From positions 1-12,018 of the forward strand of contig JALRBB010000364.1 in assembly GCA_023257915.1 (NCBI GenBank): a stretch of 12,018 bases of DNA, in the 5' to 3' direction. Made by a program: the position numbers and the translations under genes. Shown here piece by piece: positions 1-12,018 of the stretch (position 1 is the first letter of the stretch; every line of letters begins with the position of its first letter). A model generated the notes under the pieces. That model was not told the DNA's origin and made no database searches. It saw only the letters and a program-made list of their open reading frames with translations. The DNA comes from Quisquiliibacterium sp. Its GTDB lineage: Bacteria; Pseudomonadota; Gammaproteobacteria; Burkholderiales; Burkholderiaceae_E.

Positions 1-280
1 CCATCAGGCATATCGTGGCGTGCTGAGGAAGCGCATCCAGCGCCCCCTCGGCAAACAGCACCTGCTCGGCTTGCGCCGCGTTCACGACCATCAGGATCAG
101 GAAGTCGGCATTTCGGCAGGCGTCAGCCGGGTTGGCCGCGGCAATTCCGCCCTCTGCCTGCAAGCTAGCCAGCGAAGCGGGGTTGATGTCGGTGCCACGC
201 ACCACGTAATTGGCGCGCAAGAGATTGCTGGCCATGGGCAGCCCCATGGCGCCGAGGCCGGCGAATGCGATGATGGTCAT
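1..280 (-). CDS. Beta-hydroxyacid dehydrogenase (3-hydroxyisobutyrate dehydrogenase family, L-threonate dehydrogenase-like), 5' part only
   Basis: The first 93 codons of a leftward gene that continues beyond base 1. The reading frame starts MTIIAFAGLGAMGLPMASNL, with the Rossmann dinucleotide motif GLGAMG at residues 8-13. An Asp (D31, in RGTDIN) sits at the end of the second strand, which in this family favours NAD over NADP. The segment LMVVNAAQAEQVLFAEG (about residues 67-83) resembles what I recall of L-threonate dehydrogenases (LtnD), so that subfamily is my best guess, though 2-hydroxy-3-oxopropionate or 3-hydroxyisobutyrate dehydrogenases remain possible. The substrate motif and catalytic Lys lie outside the window. 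The start is forced, because an in-frame TAG lies only two codons upstream (287-289). I see no Shine-Dalgarno sequence, so translation may be weak or leaderless. It is a second member of the family also found at 4999-5892, suggesting the catabolic locus extends to the left. Confidence 0.85.
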   Translation of the reverse strand, partial: MTIIAFAGLGAMGLPMASNLLRANYVVRGTDINPASLASLQAEGGIAAANPADACRNADFLILMVVNAAQAEQVLFAEGALDALPQHATICLM

Positions 281-319
281 AACTAACTAGATCGACTGTG
301 TGCGTGTTGGAATTTGCCT

Positions 320-330
320 TTGTCCGACAA
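320..330. promoter_or_regulatory. Candidate GntR/FadR-family (FCD) operator, TTGTCCGACAA
   Basis: A perfect inverted repeat, TTGTC-C-GACAA, 40 bases upstream of the leftward dehydrogenase start (280) and 118 bases upstream of the rightward start (448). It fits TNGTNNNACNA, the consensus known for FadR/FCD-type GntR repressors, at every fixed position. These repressors commonly control sugar-acid and organic-acid catabolic genes, which fits the leftward gene. No regulator gene lies in the window and there is only one copy, so the assignment is inference. Confidence 0.4.
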
Positions 331-447
331 GATACACGCAAGCCTCGCCACAGGGCTCCCGAGCCCGCCGAGACAGCCAAAGATCCACTGACTGCGGTAT
401 CTTGTGCGCTCACACCGGTTTGTACGGATCTCCATTTCACCAGGCTG

Positions 448-2973
448 ATGATGTCGCTGGCCCCGCTTTCCTGGCTCGCGCGAATGCTGGCCCTGTCGCT
501 GCTCGTTTTCGGTCCGGCACGCACTGCCCTGGCCGCGGGCGAGCGTGACGTCATCCATCACGGTCCCGCGCTCGACGTGCAGATTGAGCGTGGCTCGACG
601 CGCCTGCCCTTGTCGCTGGTCAACCGCCTACTAGCGGGTGATCGCGTACTGGTTCGACCGGAAAAAGACACCCTCGCCAAAGGCGACTGGGTGCTGTTGC
701 TGGCGCGGGTCTCAGCGCGCGGCAACCAGGTGCAGTCCCAGCACTTCGATCTCGCCAAACTGACCGACCATGCGGCGATCGAGATCACCGATGATGGCCA
801 GGTGCCGGTGATCATGCTAGCCCCGCAGCTGCGCAATCTGTTTGGACTGAACACCAGTCTGCTGGAGTCAAGCCGCCTGCTCGACGAGGTCTTGCGCGCG
901 GACCCGCAGCGTTTTCACGATCTGCAGCGTGCTGACCAGATCAACCAGGCGATCCAGGCCCTGAGCCGAGGAATCGAGCGACGCGTCAGTGGACAGCAGC
1001 ATGCCCAGGCGGTGCAGGCCGCCCGCGAGGTCGCGGCGCGGTTCGGGGTGCGACAGGTCGACGATGAATGCTTCAAGACCCAGACCGTCAATACCGAATG
1101 CGTGGCGACCAGCATCGTCGCGAACCGCGACTTCGTGCTGCCCGGCGCCAAGGATCTCAGCGAGATGATCGGCCTGCGCAAGGGCGCTGACCTGAACAGC
1201 TTTCTAACCGCCGAGCTGCGCGTGCTGTCGCAAGCTACCGAATACCTGGGGAGCAAATACCGCGACACCTACGATTTCGCCCCAACCTTCGGGCGCCGTC
1301 AGCCACGCGGCTCGAGAGTTGAGCTGTTTTCGATCGCTCGCTTTCGCAGCGGCTCGATCAAGACCGCATACATCTATGTGCCGTCCTGGTTTGCCGGGCA
1401 GGTTCCCCGTCTGCGCCCCCGAGATGGACTGGCGCCCTGCTACGCCGCCGGACGACTGCCGATGCAGGTGATCGGCACCTTGCCGCTTGGAAACTACTGG
1501 CACGACTGGCTCATGACGGTCACCGACCCGAGCGATGATCAGACCCTGGTCGAAGTCGAAGGCCTGCGCTTCGATCCCGACTCGGGCACCTTTCGCTTTG
1601 ACGCGGCGTTCACCGACATTCCTGCTGCCCGCCGAGGCAACTCGGTCAAAGTCACTTTATCGGGCCAATTCGGCTTTGATCCGGTCGATGTGGACCCGAT
1701 CGAGATGATGCTGCCACTGCGCACTGCTCGCCAGGTCACAGATGCCATCAAGTGGCTGGATCAGCTTGTGGCAGGCGAGCGATTGCGCCTGGCACTGAGC
1801 GATGCAAGTGCCGGCGCCTGTGTGACCGGGATGACGCTCGAAACCTCGCAGGGCGCGATCTTTCGAAGCAGTCCGGACACTGCGGCTACGCTCGATCTGG
1901 ATCTCAGCGTTGCATCGGCCGGAACCGCCCGACTGAGTGTGCTGCAGTACGGCGTCGCGCCGCTGGTGGTGCCGCTGCGCATCAGACCAGCGGCGGCCAG
2001 GGTCGAGCAGCTCGAACATGCTGATCTAGACGACAAGCTCACGGTTCGCGGCAGCCGGCTTGAGCGCATCGCCAACATCGAAGTCGGGGGCATGATCTGC
2101 GATCCATCTGGTGCGATCGCATCATCGCCACGCGCTTCCGGGGACTCTGCGTCGCTGCAGCTGATCTGCCGCGGCGGCAGCTTCGAGAACGACCGTCTGC
2201 CCGACCAGGCGATCATTCATCATCGTGATGGGGAACCGCGGGCGTTCAGCGTGCCGCTGCGCAAGAGCGCCGCCAAACCGGCAGTCCGCCTGATGTCGGA
2301 CACGCCGACCGGCTTGCTGGTCACTCCATCGGCAAAAGCTCTGCAATGGCAGTTATCGCCCCAGGAAACCTATCTGACGGAGGATTCCGGACTGAGCCTG
2401 CTGCTGCAGACCATTCCCCCCTACCGACTGGCTCGCAGCGCCTACCAATTGCAGTTGCGTGTCGCCGACGATCCGCGCTCAGACCGCGAGCCGTTCACTG
2501 CTGCGCTGATTGCCGACTTTTCTCACGACGAATTGCGGACCCGTAATCCAGTGAACTTTCAACGGGACCTGCTGCCCAGTGTGGTCAATCCGCTCGAATT
2601 CCGGGTCATGCATCAGGCCAGCCAACTGGCAAGCGACTGGCAGCCGATCGGACGCTCGGTGGTGCTGCTGCCGGATCTGGACAAGGCCTCCTGCTCCCCG
2701 GATGGCAGTACCCTGTGGATCAGTGGCCGCAACTTGGACCTGATCGATGGCATCCGCGTCGATGATCCAGCCCAGGGCGTGCCGAACCCGGTTTTCGCAC
2801 CGCCAAGCTTCGATCCATGCCCGAACGGCCTTTGCCTGCGGCTACCGGCGGGCGCCGAGGCGGCTGGGCGCATGCAAGTGCGTTTGCGCTGGGTCAGCGG
2901 GCGCGATTTCAGCGTGCGCATCCCGCCAGCAGACCTTGCGTGTGCACCAGGCCAGACGCCGACGAAGCGCTGA
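448..2973 (+). CDS. Large secreted protein of unknown function with possible Ig/TIG-like repeats
   Basis: I do not recognise this 841-residue protein. The frame is open from 298, but the start is placed at 448 (or the adjacent ATG at 451). From there the N-terminus is a good signal peptide: a short basic region (R13), a hydrophobic core LALSLLVF and small residues ending TALAAG (about residue 31). The 50 residues before it have no such character. The Shine-Dalgarno site is weak (CCAGG). The mature part is mostly polar and beta-like, with a helical stretch rich in Gln/Arg/Ala at about residues 150-215. Two segments, LTVRGSRLERIANIEVGG (about 531-548) and LWISGRNLDLIDGIRV (about 755-771), share the pattern 'hydrophobic-x-G-x-x-L-x-x-I-x-x-I-x-V', which resembles TIG/IPT immunoglobulin-like domains. 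About ten Cys fall after the signal, as expected for a disulfide-bonded periplasmic or surface protein. No C-terminal anchor is visible. It stands alone on its strand, and nothing links it to the dehydrogenases that converge on it. Confidence 0.75.
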   Translation: MMSLAPLSWLARMLALSLLVFGPARTALAAGERDVIHHGPALDVQIERGSTRLPLSLVNRLLAGDRVLVRPEKDTLAKGDWVLLLARVSARGNQVQSQHFDLAKLTDHAAIEITDDGQVPVIMLAPQLRNLFGLNTSLLESSRLLDEVLRADPQRFHDLQRADQINQAIQALSRGIERRVSGQQHAQAVQAAREVAARFGVRQVDDECFKTQTVNTECVATSIVANRDFVLPGAKDLSEMIGLRKGADLNSFLTAELRVLSQATEYLGSKYRDTYDFAPTFGRRQPRGSRVELFSIARFRSGSIKTAYIYVPSWFAGQVPRLRPRDGLAPCYAAGRLPMQVIGTLPLGNYWHDWLMTVTDPSDDQTLVEVEGLRFDPDSGTFRFDAAFTDIPAARRGNSVKVTLSGQFGFDPVDVDPIEMMLPLRTARQVTDAIKWLDQLVAGERLRLALSDASAGACVTGMTLETSQGAIFRSSPDTAATLDLDLSVASAGTARLSVLQYGVAPLVVPLRIRPAAARVEQLEHADLDDKLTVRGSRLERIANIEVGGMICDPSGAIASSPRASGDSASLQLICRGGSFENDRLPDQAIIHHRDGEPRAFSVPLRKSAAKPAVRLMSDTPTGLLVTPSAKALQWQLSPQETYLTEDSGLSLLLQTIPPYRLARSAYQLQLRVADDPRSDREPFTAALIADFSHDELRTRNPVNFQRDLLPSVVNPLEFRVMHQASQLASDWQPIGRSVVLLPDLDKASCSPDGSTLWISGRNLDLIDGIRVDDPAQGVPNPVFAPPSFDPCPNGLCLRLPAGAEAAGRMQVRLRWVSGRDFSVRIPPADLACAPGQTPTKR

Positions 2974-2976
2974 AGC

Positions 2977-2998
2977 CTGGCCGCCAGCGGCTACCCAG
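2977..2998. terminator. Possible weak bidirectional hairpin between convergent genes
   Basis: The 25-base gap between the convergent stops at 2973 and 2999 holds GCCGC-CA-GCGGC (2980-2991), flanked by CTGG and CCAG. This could fold as a short G+C-rich stem on either strand. No T-tract follows on either side, so intrinsic termination is only a possibility. Confidence 0.25.
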
Positions 2999-3832
2999 TC
3001 AGGATTCGAGACGCGCCACGCGGCGAAGGGTGTCGGCATCCGTTGTCGGCAAACCGAAAAACTCCAGGTACGGCGGGATCATCTCGATCAGCATGTCAGT
3101 CCCGACCAAGGTTCGGCAGCCTCGAGCCCGCGCCGCCGCCAGCAATGCGGTGCCTTCCGCCTTTAGAACCACCTCGCCAACAAAGGCCTGTGACTCGATA
3201 CGCTCGACATCGATCGGACAGGGATCGTCTGGCTGCATGCCGAGCGGCGTCGCGTTCACCACCAAGCGATGCCCTGCCGGATCACGGGAACCGGTTTGCA
3301 CCGTCACCGCCGGAAAATTCGCTCGCAAGCGCGCGGCCAAGGCAGCACAGGCGGCCTCGTTCAGATCGAACAGCATCAAGGCGCCAATACCGGCCTGGGC
3401 CAGCGACGCGGCGATCGCACTTCCCACGCCGCCAGAGCCGACCACCAGCGCAGTCGCCCCCTGAGCCTCGAAACCCTTTCGCCGCATGCCGCGCACGAAT
3501 CCGGTGCCGTCGAACATGTCGCCGGCGAGCCGTCCGTCTGGCAGACGCTTGACCGCATTGCAGGCGCCCGCAACCCGTGCGGTGGGGCTGATCTCGTCGA
3601 GCAGTCCGACAGTGGTGACCTTGTGCGGCATCGTCACCAGCGCCCCCCGAATGTTTTCCAGCGAAAACACCGAACGCAGCAAGTGTGGATAGTTCTCTGC
3701 CCGACAACCCATCGGAACGACCACCGCATTCAGGCCGATGCTCTCGAAGTACGGGTTATAGATCTTGGGCGCAGTGAAGGTATGCGTCGGGTAACCGATG
3801 TGGGCAATGATTTCGGTGTTTCCGTCGATCAT
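2999..3832 (-). CDS. Shikimate dehydrogenase-like oxidoreductase (AroE family, probably not a true AroE)
   Basis: A 277-residue member of the shikimate/quinate dehydrogenase family, of usual length. The N-terminal substrate domain shows the family signature as PTHTFTAP (15-22; Ser-x-Ser in AroE becomes Thr-x-Thr). It continues with VTMPHK containing the catalytic Lys (K71), ACNAV (N92) and GDMFDGTGF with the catalytic Asp (D108). The Rossmann part has GSGGVGS (132-138), then LFDLNEA, where D156 replaces the NADP-binding Asn-Arg-Thr of AroE and suggests NAD use. NATPLGM (193-199) is also typical. Departures from AroE are Asn-Thr-Asp to Met-Phe-Asp near D108, and Glu (E250, GTDMLIEM) where AroE has a substrate-binding Gln. 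Catalytic residues are kept while substrate-contact residues are changed, so a non-shikimate hydroxyacid substrate is inferred. The start at 3832 is preceded by AGGA; the open frame extends further upstream but lacks family sequence. It is the last gene of a three-dehydrogenase operon, 73 bases after its neighbour. Confidence 0.85.
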   Translation of the reverse strand: MIDGNTEIIAHIGYPTHTFTAPKIYNPYFESIGLNAVVVPMGCRAENYPHLLRSVFSLENIRGALVTMPHKVTTVGLLDEISPTARVAGACNAVKRLPDGRLAGDMFDGTGFVRGMRRKGFEAQGATALVVGSGGVGSAIAASLAQAGIGALMLFDLNEAACAALAARLRANFPAVTVQTGSRDPAGHRLVVNATPLGMQPDDPCPIDVERIESQAFVGEVVLKAEGTALLAAARARGCRTLVGTDMLIEMIPPYLEFFGLPTTDADTLRRVARLES

Positions 3833-3872
3833 GCTCGAATCCTGGCAGATCAAGATGCCGGCGAGGCAAGCG

Positions 3873-3887
3873 GCGTTTGCTAAACGC
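3873..3887 (-). other. Intercistronic hairpin between the two downstream dehydrogenase genes
   Basis: GCGTTT-gct-AAACGC is a perfect 6-base-pair stem with a 3-base loop, extendable by a G·T and a C-G pair. It lies in the 73-base gap between the stop of the decarboxylating dehydrogenase (3906) and the start of the shikimate-dehydrogenase-like gene (3832). No T-run follows in the leftward transcript. A role in mRNA processing, 3'-end protection or partial attenuation is inferred. Confidence 0.4.
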
Positions 3888-3905
3888 TGGCGCGATCGCC
3901 GGCAG

Positions 3906-4988
3906 TTACCGCATGGCCCGCAATACCGCCTCGGTGAATTCAGAACAGCGCGCGCTGCCGCCCTGATCGGCAGGCACGAGTTGCCCCTGTGCCAACACCG
4001 TCTCGACTGCAGTCTCAACACGGGTGGCATCGGCCAGCAGACGCTTGTCCTGATGGCGCTCTGCGAGCCAACGCAGCATTAGCGCCCCGGACAGCATCGT
4101 GGCGATCGGACTGGCCACATCCTGCCCGGCAATGTCGGGCGCCGAACCATGCGCTCCCTGGAACAGGCCATGGTTTTCGCCGAGTTCGGCCGATGAGGCC
4201 ACCCCGAGCCCGCCAACCGTGGCCGCCCCGAGGTCCGAGATGATGTCACCGAACATATTCTCGGCGACGATCACATCGTAAAAATCCGGCTTCTTGATCA
4301 TGTGCACCGTGATCGCATCCGCATAGGCGTAATCGATCTCGACATCTGGATAGCCGGCTGCCACTTCGGTGCTGACCGCACGAAAGAACGCATAGGTATT
4401 CAGAATATTGGCCTTGTCGCAGACCGTGACCCGGCGCTTTCCGTCGCGCGGCGCACCCCGGCGGCTGCGCGAGAGCTCGAACGAAAAGCGCGTCACCCGC
4501 TCGATGCCACGTCGAGTGACCACCAGCGTGTCGGTGGCCAGTTCGTCGCGCAGTCGCACGCCGCCACCGCGGCTCGCGTACAGACCCTCGGTGTTCTCAC
4601 GCACGATCACATAGTCGATCTGCCCTGGCTGCCAGCCGGTCAACGGGGAAGTCACCCCCTTGATCAGACGGATCGGCCGCACATTGGCGAACAGATCCAG
4701 CTTGAAGCGCAAGCGCAGGTGCAGATCGTTGCCGACCTCAGTGCCGTCCGGGTAGACGACACCGGGCAAGCCGGCTGCACCATGCAGGATCGCGTCGGAG
4801 TCGCGACAAGCCTGCAGAGTGTCCGCAGGCAGCACCTCACCACTGCGCAGGTAATGCCCCGCGCCTCCGTCGAAAGCCGAAAATTCGAGGCGATCACTTC
4901 CGCAGGCTTCGCGCAACACGCGAATGGTCGCCTGATTCACCTCCGGCCCGATGCCATCGCCGTCGATCGTGACGATCTTGTACGCCAT
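3906..4988 (-). CDS. Isocitrate/isopropylmalate-type beta-decarboxylating dehydrogenase, substrate unknown
   Basis: A 360-residue member of the metal-dependent, NAD(P)-linked decarboxylating dehydrogenases of 2-(R)-hydroxyacids (isopropylmalate, isocitrate, homoisocitrate, tartrate/D-malate). Visible motifs are DGDGIGPEV (10-17), Arg residues at R94 and R104, VRENTEGLY (129-137), DKANIL with catalytic Lys K192, YADA with a metal Asp (D224), MFGDIISD with metal Asp D248 and D252, and HGSAPDIAG (280-288). RENTEGLY is closer to isocitrate/homoisocitrate dehydrogenases than to LeuB (RELTGG) or tartrate dehydrogenase (RENSEGEY). The FEPVHG of most relatives reads FQGAHG here, a Glu-to-Gln and Pro-to-Gly change before the nucleotide loop. 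The start at 4988 has GAGGGA just upstream and opens directly with the family N-terminus; extending to 5174 would add sequence antisense-like in character. It follows the upstream gene's stop by 10 bases. A role in oxidative decarboxylation of a substituted malate is inferred. Confidence 0.9.
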   Translation of the reverse strand: MAYKIVTIDGDGIGPEVNQATIRVLREACGSDRLEFSAFDGGAGHYLRSGEVLPADTLQACRDSDAILHGAAGLPGVVYPDGTEVGNDLHLRLRFKLDLFANVRPIRLIKGVTSPLTGWQPGQIDYVIVRENTEGLYASRGGGVRLRDELATDTLVVTRRGIERVTRFSFELSRSRRGAPRDGKRRVTVCDKANILNTYAFFRAVSTEVAAGYPDVEIDYAYADAITVHMIKKPDFYDVIVAENMFGDIISDLGAATVGGLGVASSAELGENHGLFQGAHGSAPDIAGQDVASPIATMLSGALMLRWLAERHQDKRLLADATRVETAVETVLAQGQLVPADQGGSARCSEFTEAVLRAMR

Positions 4989-4998
4989 CTCAGTTCCC

Positions 4999-5892
4999 TC
5001 AGGCCTTGGCTTGCGGATTGCGAGCCAGCAAATCCACCAGTTGCAGCACCATGCCCTGCGGGTCACCCTTGTCGCAGGCTGCGTCCAGCGTCGCGAACAC
5101 ACCGTCAGCGATCTGGTGTGCCGCCGACTGGGCAATGGCCATTTGCCGGAAATAGTCGACGTCCTTGCGCGCATTGGCCAACGAAAAGCGAATCGCCGAA
5201 TTGTCGCCGCTCAGCAGGTAGGGTTTGACGCGCTCGAGCGCCGCACCCCAACCGCCCCCCTTGCCGAGGACATCAACGAACACTTCATCGCCGATCCCCG
5301 CGTCACGGGCGCATGCTGCCGCCTCGGCGATCAAGGCTACCGATCCAAGCGACACGAAGTTGTGCAGCAGCTTCATCTGGTGGCCGGCGCCAACCGGCCC
5401 GACATGCGTGATGTTCTCCGCAAAGCATTCGAGGATCGCTCGACACTGCGCCACATCGGCCGCATCGCCCCCGACCAGCAGATTCAGTCTTCCCTCGGCA
5501 GCTTCCTTCGGAGTGCGGGTCATTGGCGAGTCGACGAAACGTGCACCGGCCGCCCGAACTTGCGCAGCGACCCGCAGCGTTGACTCCGGCAGGCTGGTCG
5601 AGCAATCGATCACCAGACTGCCAGCACGAATTCCGGCAAGCAACCCTTGCGGCCCGGCAAGAATCGCCTCGACCTGCGGCGAAGCGCTAACGCACAGGAT
5701 GACGATGTCACTGACTCGCGCTAGCGCCTGCGGCGACTCCACACTGTCCACGCCGAGAGCGCGCAACGAGTCCAGCGGCTGGTTGCCCGCATGCTCCATC
5801 ACCGTCAGACGCTGTCCCTTACGTGCCAGGTTGCTGGCAATGCCAAGCCCCATCATTCCGACACCGATCAAACCGATACGCGCCTCTGTCAT
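4999..5892 (-). CDS. Beta-hydroxyacid dehydrogenase (3-hydroxyisobutyrate dehydrogenase family) with atypical Thr-Arg-Thr substrate motif
   Basis: A full-length 297-residue family member. The dinucleotide motif is GVGMMG (10-15). E33 at the end of the second strand suggests NAD. The catalytic Lys is K174 in GAGHQMKLLHNF, and the second conserved Lys is K243 in ARKDVDYF. The substrate loop, normally D-A-P-V-S-G-G, reads DSPMTRTP (121-128), so Ser-Gly-Gly is replaced by Thr-Arg-Thr. In sulfolactaldehyde reductase (YihU) a Gly-Arg-Thr in this loop binds the substrate's extra anionic group, so a substrate with a second acidic group (sulfonate or carboxylate) is inferred here, not the usual 3-hydroxyisobutyrate or tartronate semialdehyde. 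AGGAG lies 6 bases before the ATG. It is the first gene of the leftward operon and diverges from the TRAP transporter genes across 168 bases, which suggests shared control. Confidence 0.9.
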   Translation of the reverse strand: MTEARIGLIGVGMMGLGIASNLARKGQRLTVMEHAGNQPLDSLRALGVDSVESPQALARVSDIVILCVSASPQVEAILAGPQGLLAGIRAGSLVIDCSTSLPESTLRVAAQVRAAGARFVDSPMTRTPKEAAEGRLNLLVGGDAADVAQCRAILECFAENITHVGPVGAGHQMKLLHNFVSLGSVALIAEAAACARDAGIGDEVFVDVLGKGGGWGAALERVKPYLLSGDNSAIRFSLANARKDVDYFRQMAIAQSAAHQIADGVFATLDAACDKGDPQGMVLQLVDLLARNPQAKA

Positions 5893-5924
5893 ACAAAACT
5901 CCTGGATCTGAATTGGGAAAAGCG

Positions 5925-5947
5925 CGGAAACGATACCAGACGTTCCG
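5925..5947. promoter_or_regulatory. Candidate promoter and operator of the dehydrogenase operon
   Basis: Read leftward, TGG-TATCGT (5930-5938) is an extended -10 element (TG one base before a 4/6 hexamer) that would start transcription about 30 bases before the dehydrogenase ATG at 5892. No good -35 box is seen. The element sits inside an inverted repeat, CGGAA (5925-5929) and TTCCG (5943-5947), with 13 bases between. A second small repeat, GACG-N5-CGTC, spans 5939-5951. A regulator bound here would cover the -10 region. This is inference from pattern only. Confidence 0.3.
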
Positions 5948-6006
5948 CGTCAGCTTGACCCACTGCTCGTTTCGATGGTCTGATGCGATCGCCCGACTGC
6001 TTACGG

Positions 6007-6036
6007 TTGGCATCGCAACGGGATTTGCGCAATAAA
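6007..6036 (+). promoter_or_regulatory. Candidate promoter of the TRAP operon with overlapping inverted repeats
   Basis: TTGGCA (6007-6012, 5/6 to the -35 consensus) and AATAAA (6031-6036, 4/6 to the -10 consensus) are 18 bases apart. They would start transcription near 6043, leaving a very short leader before the GAGGAGA ribosome binding site and the ATG at 6061. Inside lie CGCAA (6014-6018) and TTGCG (6025-6029), a 5-6-5 inverted repeat, and the perfect palindrome TTGCGCAA (6025-6032). Either is placed where a repressor would block RNA polymerase. Confidence 0.4.
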
Positions 6037-6060
6037 TTAACGAATTAGAGGAGACCACCG

Positions 6061-7092
6061 ATGATCAGGAAATTCAGCACGAGCATTGCGATGCTCGCGA
6101 TTGCTAGCCTAGGAATGGCTAGCATGCCGGCTGCCGCCGAGAAGCTCAAGTTCCAGACCAGTTCCAACGCGAGCCACCTGTCGCTAACGATCCTGAATCG
6201 CGACTGGGTGCCGAAACTCAAGGAGCGCACCCAGGGCCGCTGGGAAATCGAACTGCTGCCGATCAAGGCAGTCGTACCCCATCGCGAAACTCCGCAGGCG
6301 GTCGCCAAGGGCATCCTGGACGGCGACATGACAGCGGTCAGCTATTTTTCGGGCAAAGACCCTGCGTTCGCACTGCTCGGTGACCTGATCGCAGGCTGGG
6401 ACAAGGTCGAGCAGCAAAATGATTATTGTCGTAACGGCGGTGGCAAGGAAATGCTGCAAAAGCTGTTCGCCAAGTACTTTTCCGGTGTCACGGTGATTGC
6501 CTGCGGCGCCTACAACAAGGAAGCCTTCGTCTCGAAGGTGCCGATCAAGTCGGTCGACGACCTCAAGGGGAAAAAGATTCGCTCACCTGAGGGGCTGGCC
6601 GCTGACGTGTTCCGTCGCGTTGGCGCCGCGCCTGTGTCGCTGCCGACCTCGGAAACCTATGGCGCGCTGGAAAAAGGCGTGATCGATGGGGCTGACAACT
6701 CGGCCTACTCGAACAACGATGCCAACGGCATGCACAAAGTGGCCAAGTTCCCGATCTATCCGGGTATCCACTCGATGCCGATGTTCCAGTTCACGATCTC
6801 GACCAAGACCTGGAAGAAGATGTCCGAACAGGACCGTAAGACGCTGGAGGACTGGTTTTACGAAGCCTACGACGCGCTGACCAAGGCAATCGACGCCGAG
6901 GATCAGAAGCTGGTGGCACGCGACAAGGCCGGCAAGGACATCACCATCATCGACTGGCCCCAGGCCGAGCGGGACAAGTTCCGTGCGATTGCAGAGCAGT
7001 CCTGGGCAGACTTCGCCAAGGGTTCGCCCTTCGCTAAAGAAGCGTTCGATACGCAGACGAAGTACATGCGTTCCAAGGGCCTGCTGAAGTAA
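6061..7092 (+). CDS. dctP: TRAP transporter solute-binding protein, DctP family
   Basis: A 343-residue periplasmic binding protein that delivers its ligand to the membrane subunits encoded next. It has a clear signal peptide (MIRK, a hydrophobic core, cleavage expected after Ala-Ala-Ala at residue 26). The mature protein begins EKLKFQTSS. SYFSGKDPAFALLGDLIAGW (94-113) resembles the mannitol/chloroaromatic/2-oxoacid branch of TRAP binding proteins. KIRSPEG contains the conserved Arg (R174) that in DctP proteins pairs with the ligand carboxylate, and SETYGALEKGVIDGADN (197-213) is the following family signature. The ligand is therefore probably a carboxylate. GAGGAGA lies 6-7 bases before the start. 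It is the first gene of the rightward operon and diverges from the dehydrogenase operon. Confidence 0.92.
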   Translation: MIRKFSTSIAMLAIASLGMASMPAAAEKLKFQTSSNASHLSLTILNRDWVPKLKERTQGRWEIELLPIKAVVPHRETPQAVAKGILDGDMTAVSYFSGKDPAFALLGDLIAGWDKVEQQNDYCRNGGGKEMLQKLFAKYFSGVTVIACGAYNKEAFVSKVPIKSVDDLKGKKIRSPEGLAADVFRRVGAAPVSLPTSETYGALEKGVIDGADNSAYSNNDANGMHKVAKFPIYPGIHSMPMFQFTISTKTWKKMSEQDRKTLEDWFYEAYDALTKAIDAEDQKLVARDKAGKDITIIDWPQAERDKFRAIAEQSWADFAKGSPFAKEAFDTQTKYMRSKGLLK

Positions 7093-7131
7093 GCCGGTCG
7101 GCAACTCCAGCGCTTCCAGGAAATCGGAATC

Positions 7132-9153
7132 ATGCAAGCAGCCGCAACCGATCAGATCGCGCCACGCTATAACGTGGTCGACCATCTGAGTCATTTCACC
7201 GGTGTCGCGGCATCGGTTCTGTACCTGGTCGCTGGGGTGGCCACGCTCTGGGAGGTCTTTGCGCGCTACGTTCTAAACGCGCCGACCTCCTGGGCGTTCG
7301 AGGTGGTGATGGTGCTTTGCGCTGCATCCTGGATGCTGTCTGCCGGGTACATCACGTTACGCGAGCGGCATATCCGGATTACGGTGATCTCCGATGCGGT
7401 ATCTCCGACCGCCGGGCATCGTCTGTCCGTGTTTTCTCACGTCGTTGGCATCGTTGCGCTTTACTTTCTCCTGACCGACGTCTTCCCGCTCGCAATCGAG
7501 GCGCTCAAAGAGGGCGAACTCACCGGCTCGGCGTTCAATTCGCCGATGCCGATGCTGCTCAAGGCATTACTGATGGTTGGCGCGACGATGTATTTCGCGC
7601 AATTGACGGTCAACTTGTATCGCAAGCTGCGCACGCCCCAGTCTCGCCAGGCGTTGCTGGCTGTCGCGACAATCATGACGCTGTATCTGCTCAACGGCAT
7701 CCTGGCCGAATTGTTCGGCGAGGAACTGGTATTCGGGCAATGGAAGTCAGCGATTGCCGACACGATTGACAGCTGGGATATTGAAAAACGCCTAAACCTC
7801 AAGTCTTACGGACTAGGCACGGTCTCACTGGCGATGGTCGTCGTGCTGGTCCTGCTGATGATGACCGGTATGCCGCTGGGCGTGCTGACGCTGATCGTGT
7901 CGGTGATCGTGGCGATTGGTTTTTTCGGGCCGCAGGGCATTTACCTGGTCTCGACCAACGCCGCCGGGCTACTCGATCACTATTCGCTGATCGCAATCCC
8001 GTTCTTCGTGCTGATGGCCTCGGTACTGGAACAAGCCGGCATTGCCGAGGACCTGTTCGACGCAATGGCGATCTTCGCCGGCAATCTGCGCGGCGGTGTC
8101 GCGGTACAGACGACGATCGTTGCGGTCATCCTTGCGGCGATGTCTGGCGTGATGGGTGGCGAGATCGTGATGCTGGGTCTGGTCGCCCTGCCGCAGATGC
8201 TGCGTCTGGGCTACGACCGCAAGCTGTCGATCGGCCTGATCTGTGCCTCCGGGGCACTCGCGACGCTGATCCCCCCTTCGGTTGTGATGATCGTCTATGG
8301 CCTGTCGGCCGAGGTCGGTATTGGCGATCTGTTCATGGCCGGATTCCTGCCCGGTCTGCTGCTGGCAACGCTGTACGTCATCTACGTGCTGGTGCGGGTC
8401 AATCTGAATCCGGCAATGGCGCCGACCGCGGCTGAAGTCGCCGAAAAGAACGGCAACAAGGCGCAATTGACGCCCCAGCGGGTCAAGGCGGTGATGCTCA
8501 GCATCGCGCTGATCGGCGGCGTGATGGGTTCCATCTATGCCGGCATTGCATCGGTGACTGAAGCTGCGGCGGTTGGAGCGATCGGCGCAATTGTGATCGC
8601 GTTCCTGCGCTCCGGATGGCGCCTGGACATTCTGCGCTATTCGCTGCATGGCGCGATGTCGACCGTCGGCACGATCATCTGGCTGATTCTTGGCGCGGTG
8701 TCCTTCGTCGGAATCTACAACCTGATCGGCGGCGCGGACTTCATGCGCTCGCTGTTCATGAACCTGGGGCTGCCTGCGATGGGCGTGATCCTGGTCATGA
8801 TGGCGATCCTGGTGGTGCTGGGCACCTTCATGGAGTGGATCGCGATCGTGTTCATCACGGTCCCAGTCTTCGCGCCGGTTGTGGTGACACTCGCCCCGGA
8901 ACTGGGCTTGACGCCAGATCAGGCCAAGATCTGGTTCGGAATCCTGTTCGTGATGAACATCCAGATCTATTTCTTGTCCCCGCCATTTGGCCCGGCCTGC
9001 TTCTGGCTGAAGTCAGTCGCCCCACCGGACATCACGCTGCAGGAGATCTTCCGCGCGGTCCTGCCCTATATCGCGCTGCAGATCGTCGGCCTGGTGCTGG
9101 TGATCATGTTCCCGCAGATCGCGCTGTGGTTGCCGGAAGCCCTGGGCAACTGA
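7132..9153 (+). CDS. dctQM: TRAP transporter fused permease (small DctQ plus large DctM subunits)
   Basis: A 673-residue inner-membrane protein that fuses both TRAP membrane subunits and uses an ion gradient (usually sodium) to import the ligand presented by the binding protein. Residues about 20-165 are the DctQ part: four hydrophobic helices with FARYVLNAPTSWAFEVVM (43-60) and TLRERHIRITVI (75-86). Residues about 173-195 form an additional hydrophobic helix, followed by a polar stretch (195-225), before the DctM part at about 228-673. DctM landmarks are IPFFVLMASVLEQAGIAEDLF (a segment at 289-309), SGVMGGEIVMLG (338-349), SGALATLIPPS (373-383), VTEAAAVGAIGA (475-486) and FLSPPFGPACFWLKSVAPP (614-632). 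The SPPFG...VAPP form is typical of the mannitol/chloroaromatic/2-oxoacid type rather than C4-dicarboxylate DctM. AGGAAA lies 8 bases before the ATG, 39 bases after the upstream stop. Confidence 0.93.
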   Translation: MQAAATDQIAPRYNVVDHLSHFTGVAASVLYLVAGVATLWEVFARYVLNAPTSWAFEVVMVLCAASWMLSAGYITLRERHIRITVISDAVSPTAGHRLSVFSHVVGIVALYFLLTDVFPLAIEALKEGELTGSAFNSPMPMLLKALLMVGATMYFAQLTVNLYRKLRTPQSRQALLAVATIMTLYLLNGILAELFGEELVFGQWKSAIADTIDSWDIEKRLNLKSYGLGTVSLAMVVVLVLLMMTGMPLGVLTLIVSVIVAIGFFGPQGIYLVSTNAAGLLDHYSLIAIPFFVLMASVLEQAGIAEDLFDAMAIFAGNLRGGVAVQTTIVAVILAAMSGVMGGEIVMLGLVALPQMLRLGYDRKLSIGLICASGALATLIPPSVVMIVYGLSAEVGIGDLFMAGFLPGLLLATLYVIYVLVRVNLNPAMAPTAAEVAEKNGNKAQLTPQRVKAVMLSIALIGGVMGSIYAGIASVTEAAAVGAIGAIVIAFLRSGWRLDILRYSLHGAMSTVGTIIWLILGAVSFVGIYNLIGGADFMRSLFMNLGLPAMGVILVMMAILVVLGTFMEWIAIVFITVPVFAPVVVTLAPELGLTPDQAKIWFGILFVMNIQIYFLSPPFGPACFWLKSVAPPDITLQEIFRAVLPYIALQIVGLVLVIMFPQIALWLPEALGN

Positions 9154-9181
9154 GCGCATTGAATCGACAGGAGACGCAAAC

Positions 9182-9304
9182 ATGCAAGGACGCGATGGTC
9201 TGGAAGAAGCCGATCGCTATGGCCCGATCGGCTGGATCGCAGGTGTCATCCTATCGGCGGCACTGATTCTGACGATGTTTCTGATGTCCAAGGGTCACTT
9301 CTGA
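9182..9304 (+). CDS. Small single-pass membrane protein in the TRAP operon (40 residues)
   Basis: An ATG at 9182, with a strong AGGAGA 7 bases upstream, opens a 40-codon frame ending TGA at 9302-9304, 28 bases after the permease stop on the same strand. The first 13 residues are charged and mostly acidic (E8, E9, D11 with R4, R12). Residues about 15-36 (PIGWIAGVILSAALILTMFL and the next two) form one uninterrupted hydrophobic helix, and the tail is KGHF. The positive tail predicts the C-terminus in the cytoplasm. Its size, strong ribosome binding site, spacing and membrane character argue for a real gene; it is too short for most ORF callers. I know of no standard third membrane component in fused-permease TRAP systems, so a role in assembly, stability or gating of the permease is only inferred. 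Confidence 0.75.
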   Translation: MQGRDGLEEADRYGPIGWIAGVILSAALILTMFLMSKGHF

Positions 9305-10908: not shown

Positions 10909-12018
10909 TCATCGCACCGAGCGGTACACCGCGCGCCTGAGCCGGGGAGTCAGGACAAGCTGCCAGAGTTGCCCCTGGCGTGAGCGGAAGAACCCGGCGC
11001 AACAGTGCAGGTAATACTTCCACATCCGGTAAAACCGCTGATCGTAGCGATCGGCAAGTCGCAGCCAGGCCTTATCGAAGCGCTGCCACCAGGCCATCAG
11101 CGTCCGGTCGTAGTCTTGCCCGAAGTTGTGCCAGTCTTCGATGATGAAACGCCCCTCAAGTGCCTGGGTAAGCTCGATCGCCGAGGGCAGCTTGCCGTTC
11201 GGGAAGATGTATCGATCGATCCAGGGATCTGTATGCGCTGAGGTGACGTCGACACCGATCGTATGCAGCAGGAAGATTCCGTCCTCGTTGAGCAAGCGTC
11301 TCGCCGCACCGAAGTAGGCCTCGTAGTTTTTGGGCCCGACATGCTCAAACATGCCCACTGAGGCAATGCGATCGAAATGGCCGCTGAGTTCCCGGTAGTC
11401 GACCAGTTCGATCTGCACCGGCAGGCCCTTGCAACGCTCAAGCGCCAGCGCCTGCTGCTCCCGGGAAACCGTGACGCCGACGACACTGACTCCATAACGC
11501 TCCGCGGCAAAGCGCGCCAGCCCGCCCCATCCACAACCGATGTCGAGCAGCCGCATACCCGGCCTGAGCTGAAGCTTGCGGCAGATCAGGTCCAGCTTGT
11601 GCTCCTGAGCTTGCTCCAGCGTACTGGCGCTCGCCCAATAGCCGCAGGAATAGATCATCCGCGAATCGAGCATTGCCTCGAAAACATCGTTGCCGATGTC
11701 GTAATGCCTCTCGCCGACCTGATAGGCCCGCCGCGAGGATTGCAGGTTCAAAAAGCGGTGGCGGAGCAATTCGATCGCCATCCTCAGCCTGGCCGATCCG
11801 ACGACTCGTCGGTCTAGATTGGCAGACATCACGCGGGTAAAAAATTCGTCGAGCTGCTGGCAATCCCACATTCCATCCATGTAGGTTTCGCCGAGCCCGA
11901 GCGACCAGCGGGAAAATACTTCCCGGTACACCCGATCGTCGTGTACCAGCATGTCTGCCGGTCCGGATCCGTTGATGCAGACCGATGCGAGTTGCAGCAG
12001 TTCTGCGAGAACTGCCGG
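10909..12018 (-). CDS. cfa: Cyclopropane fatty acid synthase, 5' end missing at the window edge
   Basis: The enzyme transfers a methylene group from S-adenosylmethionine to unsaturated acyl chains of membrane phospholipids. The frame is open to base 12018, giving 369 residues. Sequence before the internal Met at 11952 (LASVCINGSGPADM) still matches E. coli Cfa, so only about 20 N-terminal residues are missing and the Met at 11952 is not the start. The match continues with SLGLGETYMDGMW, then ERHYDIGNDVF and the YSCGYW motif with the conserved Cys. LLDIGCGWGG is the SAM-binding loop. VGMFEHVGPKNY, FLLHTIG and NFGQDYD carry the Glu, His and Tyr that hold bicarbonate in Cfa. The end, TPRLRRAVYRSVR, is complete. 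In enterobacteria cfa is induced in stationary phase by RpoS; its promoter lies outside the window. Transcription may continue into ratA through two hairpins. Confidence 0.96.
   Translation of the reverse strand, partial: PAVLAELLQLASVCINGSGPADMLVHDDRVYREVFSRWSLGLGETYMDGMWDCQQLDEFFTRVMSANLDRRVVGSARLRMAIELLRHRFLNLQSSRRAYQVGERHYDIGNDVFEAMLDSRMIYSCGYWASASTLEQAQEHKLDLICRKLQLRPGMRLLDIGCGWGGLARFAAERYGVSVVGVTVSREQQALALERCKGLPVQIELVDYRELSGHFDRIASVGMFEHVGPKNYEAYFGAARRLLNEDGIFLLHTIGVDVTSAHTDPWIDRYIFPNGKLPSAIELTQALEGRFIIEDWHNFGQDYDRTLMAWWQRFDKAWLRLADRYDQRFYRMWKYYLHCCAGFFRSRQGQLWQLVLTPRLRRAVYRSVR

What the first reader, a model, noticed from the sequence alone, without database searches (positions are those of the whole stretch)
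2999..9304. Possible undescribed catabolic locus: three unusual dehydrogenases divergent from a fused-permease TRAP system
A 168-base divergent promoter region separates a tight operon of three NAD(P)-linked dehydrogenases from three different superfamilies (beta-hydroxyacid, isocitrate/isopropylmalate-type decarboxylating, shikimate-type) from a TRAP operon of the mannitol/chloroaromatic/2-oxoacid type. Each enzyme keeps its catalytic residues but departs from the canonical family at substrate-contact positions, which suggests they act on one uncommon acid. I know of no characterised pathway with exactly this set. A plausible but unproven order is alcohol oxidation, oxidative decarboxylation, then reduction or oxidation of the shortened acid.
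Basis: partly seen in the sequence, partly recalled or inferred. Interest (0 to 1): 0.75.

Follow-up and report, generated by a model that had tools for sequence, protein, structure and literature searches.

The report
Dehydrogenase operon for unusual sugar acid
This bacterial DNA carries three linked dehydrogenase genes beside an acid-uptake system; two of the three belong to an enzyme pair that, in a number of related bacteria, sits with genes for breaking down a rare branched plant sugar acid, so the locus is probably a sugar-acid degradation pathway whose exact substrate is still unknown.

Summary
The genes are as described: HIBADH-like, IsoDH-like and AroE-like genes, 168 bases from a divergent TRAP operon with fused DctQM. 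As one conserved four-part locus the idea is not supported: the two TRAP orthologue loci examined have other neighbours, and in 74 genomes of the host family IsoDH and AroE share a contig only in the window. What recurs is the HIBADH-IsoDH pair. In 13 orthologous IsoDH loci HIBADH is present in 10 and a D-apionate-type set (ApnO-like, RuBisCO-like, OiaK kinase) in 9; over all 22 IsoDH loci examined the counts are 13 and 11. The set is in 0 of 80 AroE-chosen and 0 of 11 HIBADH-only loci. The host has another IsoDH paralogue beside a RuBisCO-like gene and an OiaK fragment. AroE is a diverged branch of a family often found in quinate/shikimate-type operons. Best reading: catabolism of a polyhydroxylated, probably branched sugar acid, with IsoDH as oxidative decarboxylase. 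Substrate and reaction order are inferred. Interest is moderate.

The parts
4999..5892 (-). HIBADH-like beta-hydroxyacid dehydrogenase, 297 aa, subfamily with MTRTP in place of the SGG motif
   Evidence: Pfam NAD_binding_2 and NAD_binding_11; best NCBIfam 143 bits against a 341 cut-off; motif and tree
3906..4988 (-). Iso_dh family dehydrogenase, 360 aa, subfamily DGTEVGNDLHL
   Evidence: Pfam Iso_dh 287 bits; no NCBIfam cut-off met; signature in relatives; neighbourhoods
2999..3832 (-). AroE-like (shikimate dehydrogenase family) protein, 277 aa, diverged branch
   Evidence: Pfam Shikimate_dh_N; context of relatives; clade 99/100 and T21, L224, L243
5893..6060 (.). 168-base divergent intergenic region; a 7+7 inverted repeat at 5923-5949 may be chance
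   Evidence: no sigma-70-like match
6061..7092 (+). TRAP solute-binding protein DctP
   Evidence: Pfam DctP; NF037995 85 bits against a 50 cut-off; best match among solved structures 4pe3
7132..9153 (+). fused TRAP permease DctQ-DctM, 673 aa
   Evidence: Pfam DctQ 36-167 and DctM 236-663; TIGR00786 279 bits against a 268 cut-off

Best explanation
The minus-strand operon is a catabolic module for a polyhydroxylated, probably branched-chain sugar acid related to D-apionate. SHOWN: HIBADH and IsoDH belong to two subfamilies with their own signatures that are often gene neighbours (13 of 22 IsoDH loci) and in half of those loci (11 of 22; 9 of 13 in one family sample) lie beside an ApnO-like / RuBisCO-like / OiaK gene set; AroE belongs to a branch of a family often found with quinate/shikimate-type genes. 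INFERRED: HIBADH oxidises a hydroxymethyl or beta-hydroxyl group of the acid; an aldehyde dehydrogenase (encoded beside these genes in some relatives, not in the window) completes oxidation to a dicarboxylic acid with a malate core; IsoDH oxidises the 2-hydroxyl and removes the 3-carboxylate as CO2, giving a shorter 2-oxo acid; the AroE-like enzyme interconverts a keto and a hydroxyl group on a related or shortened compound. INFERRED and weaker: the divergent TRAP imports the acid.
For: IsoDH orthologues (74-84% identity) were found in 13 of 399 genomes sampled from the family of G503, which was itself chosen because it holds one; only the top five candidates per genome were scored, so 13 is a lower bound. 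In their 13 neighbourhoods (15-19 kb) HIBADH is in 10, ApnO-like, RLP and OiaK together in 9, ALDH in 6. The set is in 0 of 80 AroE-chosen loci and 0 of 11 HIBADH loci not chosen by IsoDH (Fisher 7e-10 and 6e-4; loci are related by descent and some are short, and the search proteins came from an IsoDH locus, so this is only indicative). The set also occurs in family member G022 (L133) and a Variovorax plasmid (L149). OiaK is above the NCBIfam cut-off of 700 in the four full-length copies tested: 716, 723, 784, 756 bits. The host's contig C86 has another IsoDH (49%) beside an RLP (489 bits to OiaX) and an OiaK N-terminal fragment at the contig end. In the host family all five IsoDH-positive genomes, host included, also hold HIBADH, against 27 of 74 overall. 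IsoDH and HIBADH are co-directional in some loci and divergent in others, which argues for a functional tie rather than recent common descent alone.
Against: No ApnO, RLP or OiaK lies in the window. 4 of 13 IsoDH loci lack the set; of six own-family IsoDH loci (five genomes, several short contigs) one has it, and of three plasmid loci one. In the HIBADH tree the window joins the apionate-linked L179/L180 only weakly (87/46); its nearest rows by path and its highest identity (62%, L054) are AroE-linked copies. The window's DctP is 23% identical to the one DctP of such a cluster that I compared (L149). The ApnO-like protein tested meets no NCBIfam cut-off and the five RLPs tested score 439-489 against 700 for OiaX, so even the reference cluster's substrate is inferred. 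No ALDH in the window. No activity data.
Confidence: 0.4

Rival explanations
1. Pantoate (pantothenate) breakdown: HIBADH oxidises pantoate, an aldehyde dehydrogenase makes 3,3-dimethylmalate, IsoDH decarboxylates it to 2-oxoisovalerate. The enzymology (recalled, 1960s work) has, to my recollection, no assigned genes.
For: A Paracoccus plasmid has HIBADH (48%), an aldehyde dehydrogenase, IsoDH (58%) and then, after an Lrp-type regulator, genes annotated as the branched-chain 2-oxoacid dehydrogenase complex. Amidase genes, as a pantothenase might be, lie near IsoDH in L150 and L158. ALDH is near IsoDH in 6 of 13 loci.
Against: H90, present in 120 of 120 listed relatives, is Leu in the four isopropylmalate dehydrogenases aligned, which suits a polar rather than a dimethyl side group. 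The Paracoccus IsoDH lacks the NDLH signature. The OiaK linkage is unexplained.
Confidence: 0.13
2. Quinate/shikimate-type cyclitol-acid catabolism, with AroE as the key enzyme and the other two as accessories.
For: AroE relatives lie with an AroQ-like gene in 47 of 80 loci, and in a Rhizobium plasmid with annotated type II 3-dehydroquinate dehydratase, a QuiC-like protein and protocatechuate genes. HIBADH lies near AroE in 6 of 80, and the window HIBADH is nearest by path to such copies.
Against: No AroQ or QuiC in the window. The window protein, its near-copy P0001, P0002 and P0003 change positions 21, 224 and 243, which are 96-99% conserved in the 206 other rows; one more distant protein, L016, shows the same kind of change. 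IsoDH has no place in that pathway and was found in 1 of 50 AroE-chosen genomes.
Confidence: 0.12
3. A mosaic: three separately recruited dehydrogenases and a TRAP that happen to be neighbours and do not act on one compound.
For: The four parts have different partners elsewhere. The orthologous TRAP of a same-genus genome (87%) has, in the 4 kb available upstream, a small ORF and a divergent iron alcohol dehydrogenase but none of the three dehydrogenases.
Against: The HIBADH-IsoDH pair recurs in rearranged orders. The shared contig length 14,128 for IsoDH (94%) and AroE (82%) relatives suggests the link is kept in another species. A 10-base gap joins HIBADH and IsoDH.
Confidence: 0.27
4. An ordinary tartrate/D-malate or threonate pathway.
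For: Tartrate dehydrogenase and L-threonate dehydrogenase models are among the hits, and an LtnD-like fragment lies at 2-280.
Against: Scores are far below curated cut-offs: 282 against 470 (IsoDH) and 119 against 350 (HIBADH).
Confidence: 0.08

Closest known systems
D-apionate / 3-oxo-isoapionate pathway (ApnO, OiaK, OiaT or OiaX; pathway description recalled, the original paper was not held)
   Same: IsoDH and HIBADH subfamilies lie beside this kind of gene set in 9 of 13 loci of one family sample, 11 of 22 overall; OiaK confirmed by curated cut-off in four copies
   Different: IsoDH, HIBADH and AroE are not, to my recollection, part of the described pathway; the set is absent from the window
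Tartrate/D-malate/isopropylmalate dehydrogenase family (Iso_dh)
   Same: family and conserved catalytic and malate-binding motifs
   Different: no equivalog cut-off met; own signature NDLH
Beta-hydroxyacid dehydrogenases (tartronate semialdehyde reductase, HIBADH, LtnD, sulfolactaldehyde reductase)
   Same: domains and the Lys/Asn that I recall as catalytic
   Different: SGG replaced by TRT; scores less than half of the cut-offs
Catabolic shikimate/quinate dehydrogenases (AroE family)
   Same: up to 72% identity to AroE proteins in loci with an AroQ-like gene, such as L045; K72/N93/D109 kept
   Different: changes at 21, 224 and 243; no AroQ or QuiC partner

Membership tests
D-apionate (ApnO-OiaK-OiaT) pathway | OiaK kinase, RuBisCO-like enzyme and ApnO in the locus | tested here: not met
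   none in the 12-kb window; present beside 11 of 22 IsoDH loci and, as RLP plus OiaK fragment, on the host's contig C86
Tartrate dehydrogenase (TIGR02089) | curated score 470.4 | tested here: not met
   281.8 bits
3-isopropylmalate dehydrogenase (TIGR00169 / NF002898) | curated scores 353.2 / 393 | tested here: not met
   240.9 / 312.6 bits
Tartronate semialdehyde reductase (TIGR01505) | curated score 340.75 | tested here: not met
   143.2 bits
L-threonate dehydrogenase (NF043037) | curated score 350 | tested here: not met
   118.6 bits for HIBADH
Shikimate dehydrogenase (NF001319, TIGR00507) | curated scores 252 / 200.2 | tested here: not met
   154 / 127.9 bits
Shikimate dehydrogenase superfamily | catalytic Lys, Asn, Asp | tested here: met
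   K72, N93, D109 aligned; their role is recalled
Quinate/shikimate catabolic operon | AroQ and 3-dehydroshikimate dehydratase alongside | tested here: not met
   absent from the window; elsewhere in the host not searched
TRAP transporter | DctP, DctQ and DctM | tested here: met
   NF037995 85 against 50, TIGR00786 279 against 268, Pfam DctQ
Any of the above | enzyme activity and substrate | not testable with these tools
   no assay

The most novel reading that the evidence does not exclude
The IsoDH/HIBADH subfamilies define an undescribed decarboxylating branch of branched-sugar-acid catabolism that runs beside the D-apionate pathway: a C3-branched aldonic acid with a second carboxylate (made by oxidising a hydroxymethyl of apionate or isoapionate, or taken from a 3-C-carboxy sugar such as aceric acid of rhamnogalacturonan II) is oxidatively decarboxylated by IsoDH. 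In the window's species a relative of the quinate/shikimate dehydrogenases was recruited as a third step.
Probability: 0.25. Interest if true: 0.62.

Novelty: new variant of a known kind. Interest (0 to 1): 0.42.

Why it matters
Branched plant sugar acids reach soils and fresh water, and few routes for their breakdown are known (general knowledge). An Iso_dh subfamily that recurs beside the 3-oxo-isoapionate kinase cluster gives a concrete, assayable function prediction for proteins that one source labels 3-isopropylmalate dehydrogenase, and suggests how a shikimate dehydrogenase relative may be recruited to a new acid.

Tried and rejected
Rejected: one conserved trio-plus-TRAP locus. Rejected: canonical shikimate, isopropylmalate, tartrate, threonate or tartronate-semialdehyde enzymes. 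Not kept as diagnostic: AroE positions 22 and 252 (loss of a Ser and a Gln that I recall as shikimate contacts), because A22 and M252 also occur in AroQ-linked relatives. Pantoate degradation was considered because of the Paracoccus locus and kept as a rival. Literature: searches for apionate with RuBisCO-like, pantothenate-catabolism terms, apiose/apionate/isoapionate, aceric acid with apiose, quinate with TRAP and OiaT/ApnO/OiaK were seen as listings only, with up to 30 titles each; I saw none on these genes, and no paper was opened. That no pathway with this set is in print is therefore suggested only for the open-licence library, those terms and those listings. The promoter scan gave nothing; no tRNA and no Rfam match above threshold in the window. 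No structure prediction was run. The order-wide IsoDH search (1 of 399, the host alone) scored only the top five candidates per genome and left out family members known to hold the gene, so I give it little weight. Gene calls in loci come from my own codon-usage script, not a standard gene finder; the regulator, VOC and TIM-barrel labels of the AroE operon are my reading of sequences, AroQ and TIM supported by matches of 39% and 35% to annotated genes of L155.
Full report
What is there. The window is contig C247 of a 3.03-Mb, 77.6% complete assembly. The dehydrogenase operon reads HIBADH-like (4999-5892), IsoDH-like (3906-4988), AroE-like (2999-3832), all minus strand, with gaps of 10 and 73 bases, and is separated by 168 bases from DctP (6061-7092) and a fused DctQM (7132-9153) on the plus strand. 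G+C is 62.5-63.4% over 3001-6000 and 58-62% over 6001-9000.

None of the three enzymes is a canonical family member by score. All fall well below the NCBIfam cut-offs of the models listed while keeping the motifs that I recall as catalytic. Of 29 HIBADH rows (chosen at 45% identity or more), 26 have MTRTP, two MTRLP and one MTRTA where four outgroup rows have SGG. IsoDH has DGTEVGNDLHL, with His at position 90 in all 120 listed database relatives; in the four isopropylmalate dehydrogenases aligned that position is Leu, and in tartrate dehydrogenase it falls in a gap. AroE has T21, L224 and L243 where 98%, 96% and 99% of 206 other rows have K, M and Q. P0002 and P0003 share T21 and L224 and also lack Q243; with the near-copy P0001 they form a clade with the window at 99/100 support. 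A more distant protein from the host's family, L016, also has T21, L224 and V243 but was not placed in that clade; its branch is long.

Where the AroE family comes from. In 47 of these 80 loci an AroQ-like gene is near, typically as regulator, DctQ, DctM, DctP, AroQ, AroE, VOC-domain and TIM-barrel genes (labels partly my reading). In a Rhizobium plasmid the annotated neighbours are type II 3-dehydroquinate dehydratase, a sugar phosphate isomerase / 4-hydroxyphenylpyruvate domain protein and protocatechuate genes. In several genomes nearer to the host (G034, G026, G038, G070, G071) relatives sit instead with genes matching a Liv-type ABC transporter. So the family is often, not always, a quinate/shikimate-type catabolic dehydrogenase, and the window's copy is a diverged branch without those partners.

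Where the IsoDH-HIBADH pair belongs. In the host's family IsoDH is in 5 of 74 genomes, AroE in 9 and HIBADH in 27 at the thresholds used, host included. All five IsoDH genomes also hold HIBADH, adjacent to IsoDH in the window and in G022; IsoDH and AroE share a contig only in the window. In the sampled family of G503, IsoDH is in 13 of 399. In those 13 loci HIBADH is present in 10, the ApnO-like/RLP/OiaK set in 9, an aldehyde dehydrogenase in 6, and a glyoxylate-reductase-like enzyme in 3. Adding six own-family loci (five genomes) and three plasmid loci (three picked from the 15 listed of 712 records) gives HIBADH in 13 of 22 and the set in 11 of 22. The set is in 0 of 80 AroE loci and 0 of 11 HIBADH loci not chosen by IsoDH. 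OiaK was named by its curated cut-off in the four full-length copies tested; a truncated gene call in L190 (474 bits) and the contig-end fragment in the host (218 bits) fall below it. The five RuBisCO-like proteins tested score 439-489 against the OiaX cut-off of 700, so they may be the OiaT type (recalled). In the host itself, contig C86 carries an IsoDH paralogue (49%) with TctA and TctC transporter genes, a BKACE enzyme, an RLP and the OiaK fragment.

What this implies. The IsoDH family oxidises the 2-hydroxyl of a malate-type acid and removes the 3-carboxylate (general knowledge). An alcohol dehydrogenase, an aldehyde dehydrogenase and this enzyme together would turn a hydroxymethyl group into CO2. 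Apionate and isoapionate carry such groups. This fits the recurring neighbours, but the reaction is inferred.

The weak parts. The TRAP is not seen with the dehydrogenases elsewhere. In a same-genus genome the 87% orthologue (L140, a 5.2-kb contig) has upstream a 121-residue ORF and a divergent iron alcohol dehydrogenase; a 71-72% orthologue (L141) sits with a galactarate/altronate-type dehydratase, an IlvD/Edd dehydratase and an RraA-like protein. Among the 120 best DctP relatives none lists a longest contig of 14,128 bases. IsoDH occurs in 1 of 50 AroE-chosen genomes. Half of the IsoDH loci lack the OiaK set. The window HIBADH joins L179/L180 only weakly and is nearest by path to AroE-linked copies. 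The Paracoccus locus points instead to 2-oxoisovalerate metabolism.

Verdict.

Noticed in passing
window 2-280 (-): N-terminal part of another beta-hydroxyacid dehydrogenase (best model L-threonate dehydrogenase, 76 bits over 93 residues) cut by the contig end; divergent from a long ORF.
   Followed up: no
window 298-2973 (+): Long ORF (891 aa from the first start; my script aa from 484) with no Pfam or NCBIfam match; by eye its start looks like a signal peptide.
   Followed up: no
G000:C86 (L038) 3-9024: Another acid-catabolic cluster in the same genome: OiaK fragment, RuBisCO-like protein, LysR, alpha/beta hydrolase, BKACE, IsoDH paralogue, TctA and TctC.
   Followed up: partly
G000:C186 (L132) 3-3224: A HIBADH-like (36%) and an AroE-like (31%) gene lie close together beside a CoA-transferase III gene.
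   Followed up: no
L145 and L146: IsoDH relatives at 47% identity sit with a Gfo/Idh/MocA oxidoreductase and a TRAP system; in L145 also a gluconolactonase-like (SGL) gene and a GntR regulator, a layout that would suit sugar to lactone to aldonate. The proteins tested met no NCBIfam cut-off.
   Followed up: partly
L151 (Paracoccus seriniphilus plasmid): HIBADH, aldehyde dehydrogenase and IsoDH next to a branched-chain 2-oxoacid dehydrogenase operon, a possible pantoate route.
   Followed up: partly
window 11943-12018 and G000:C190:1-76: 97% match between the window's right end and the start of another contig, probably an assembly overlap inside the cyclopropane fatty acid synthase gene.
   Followed up: no
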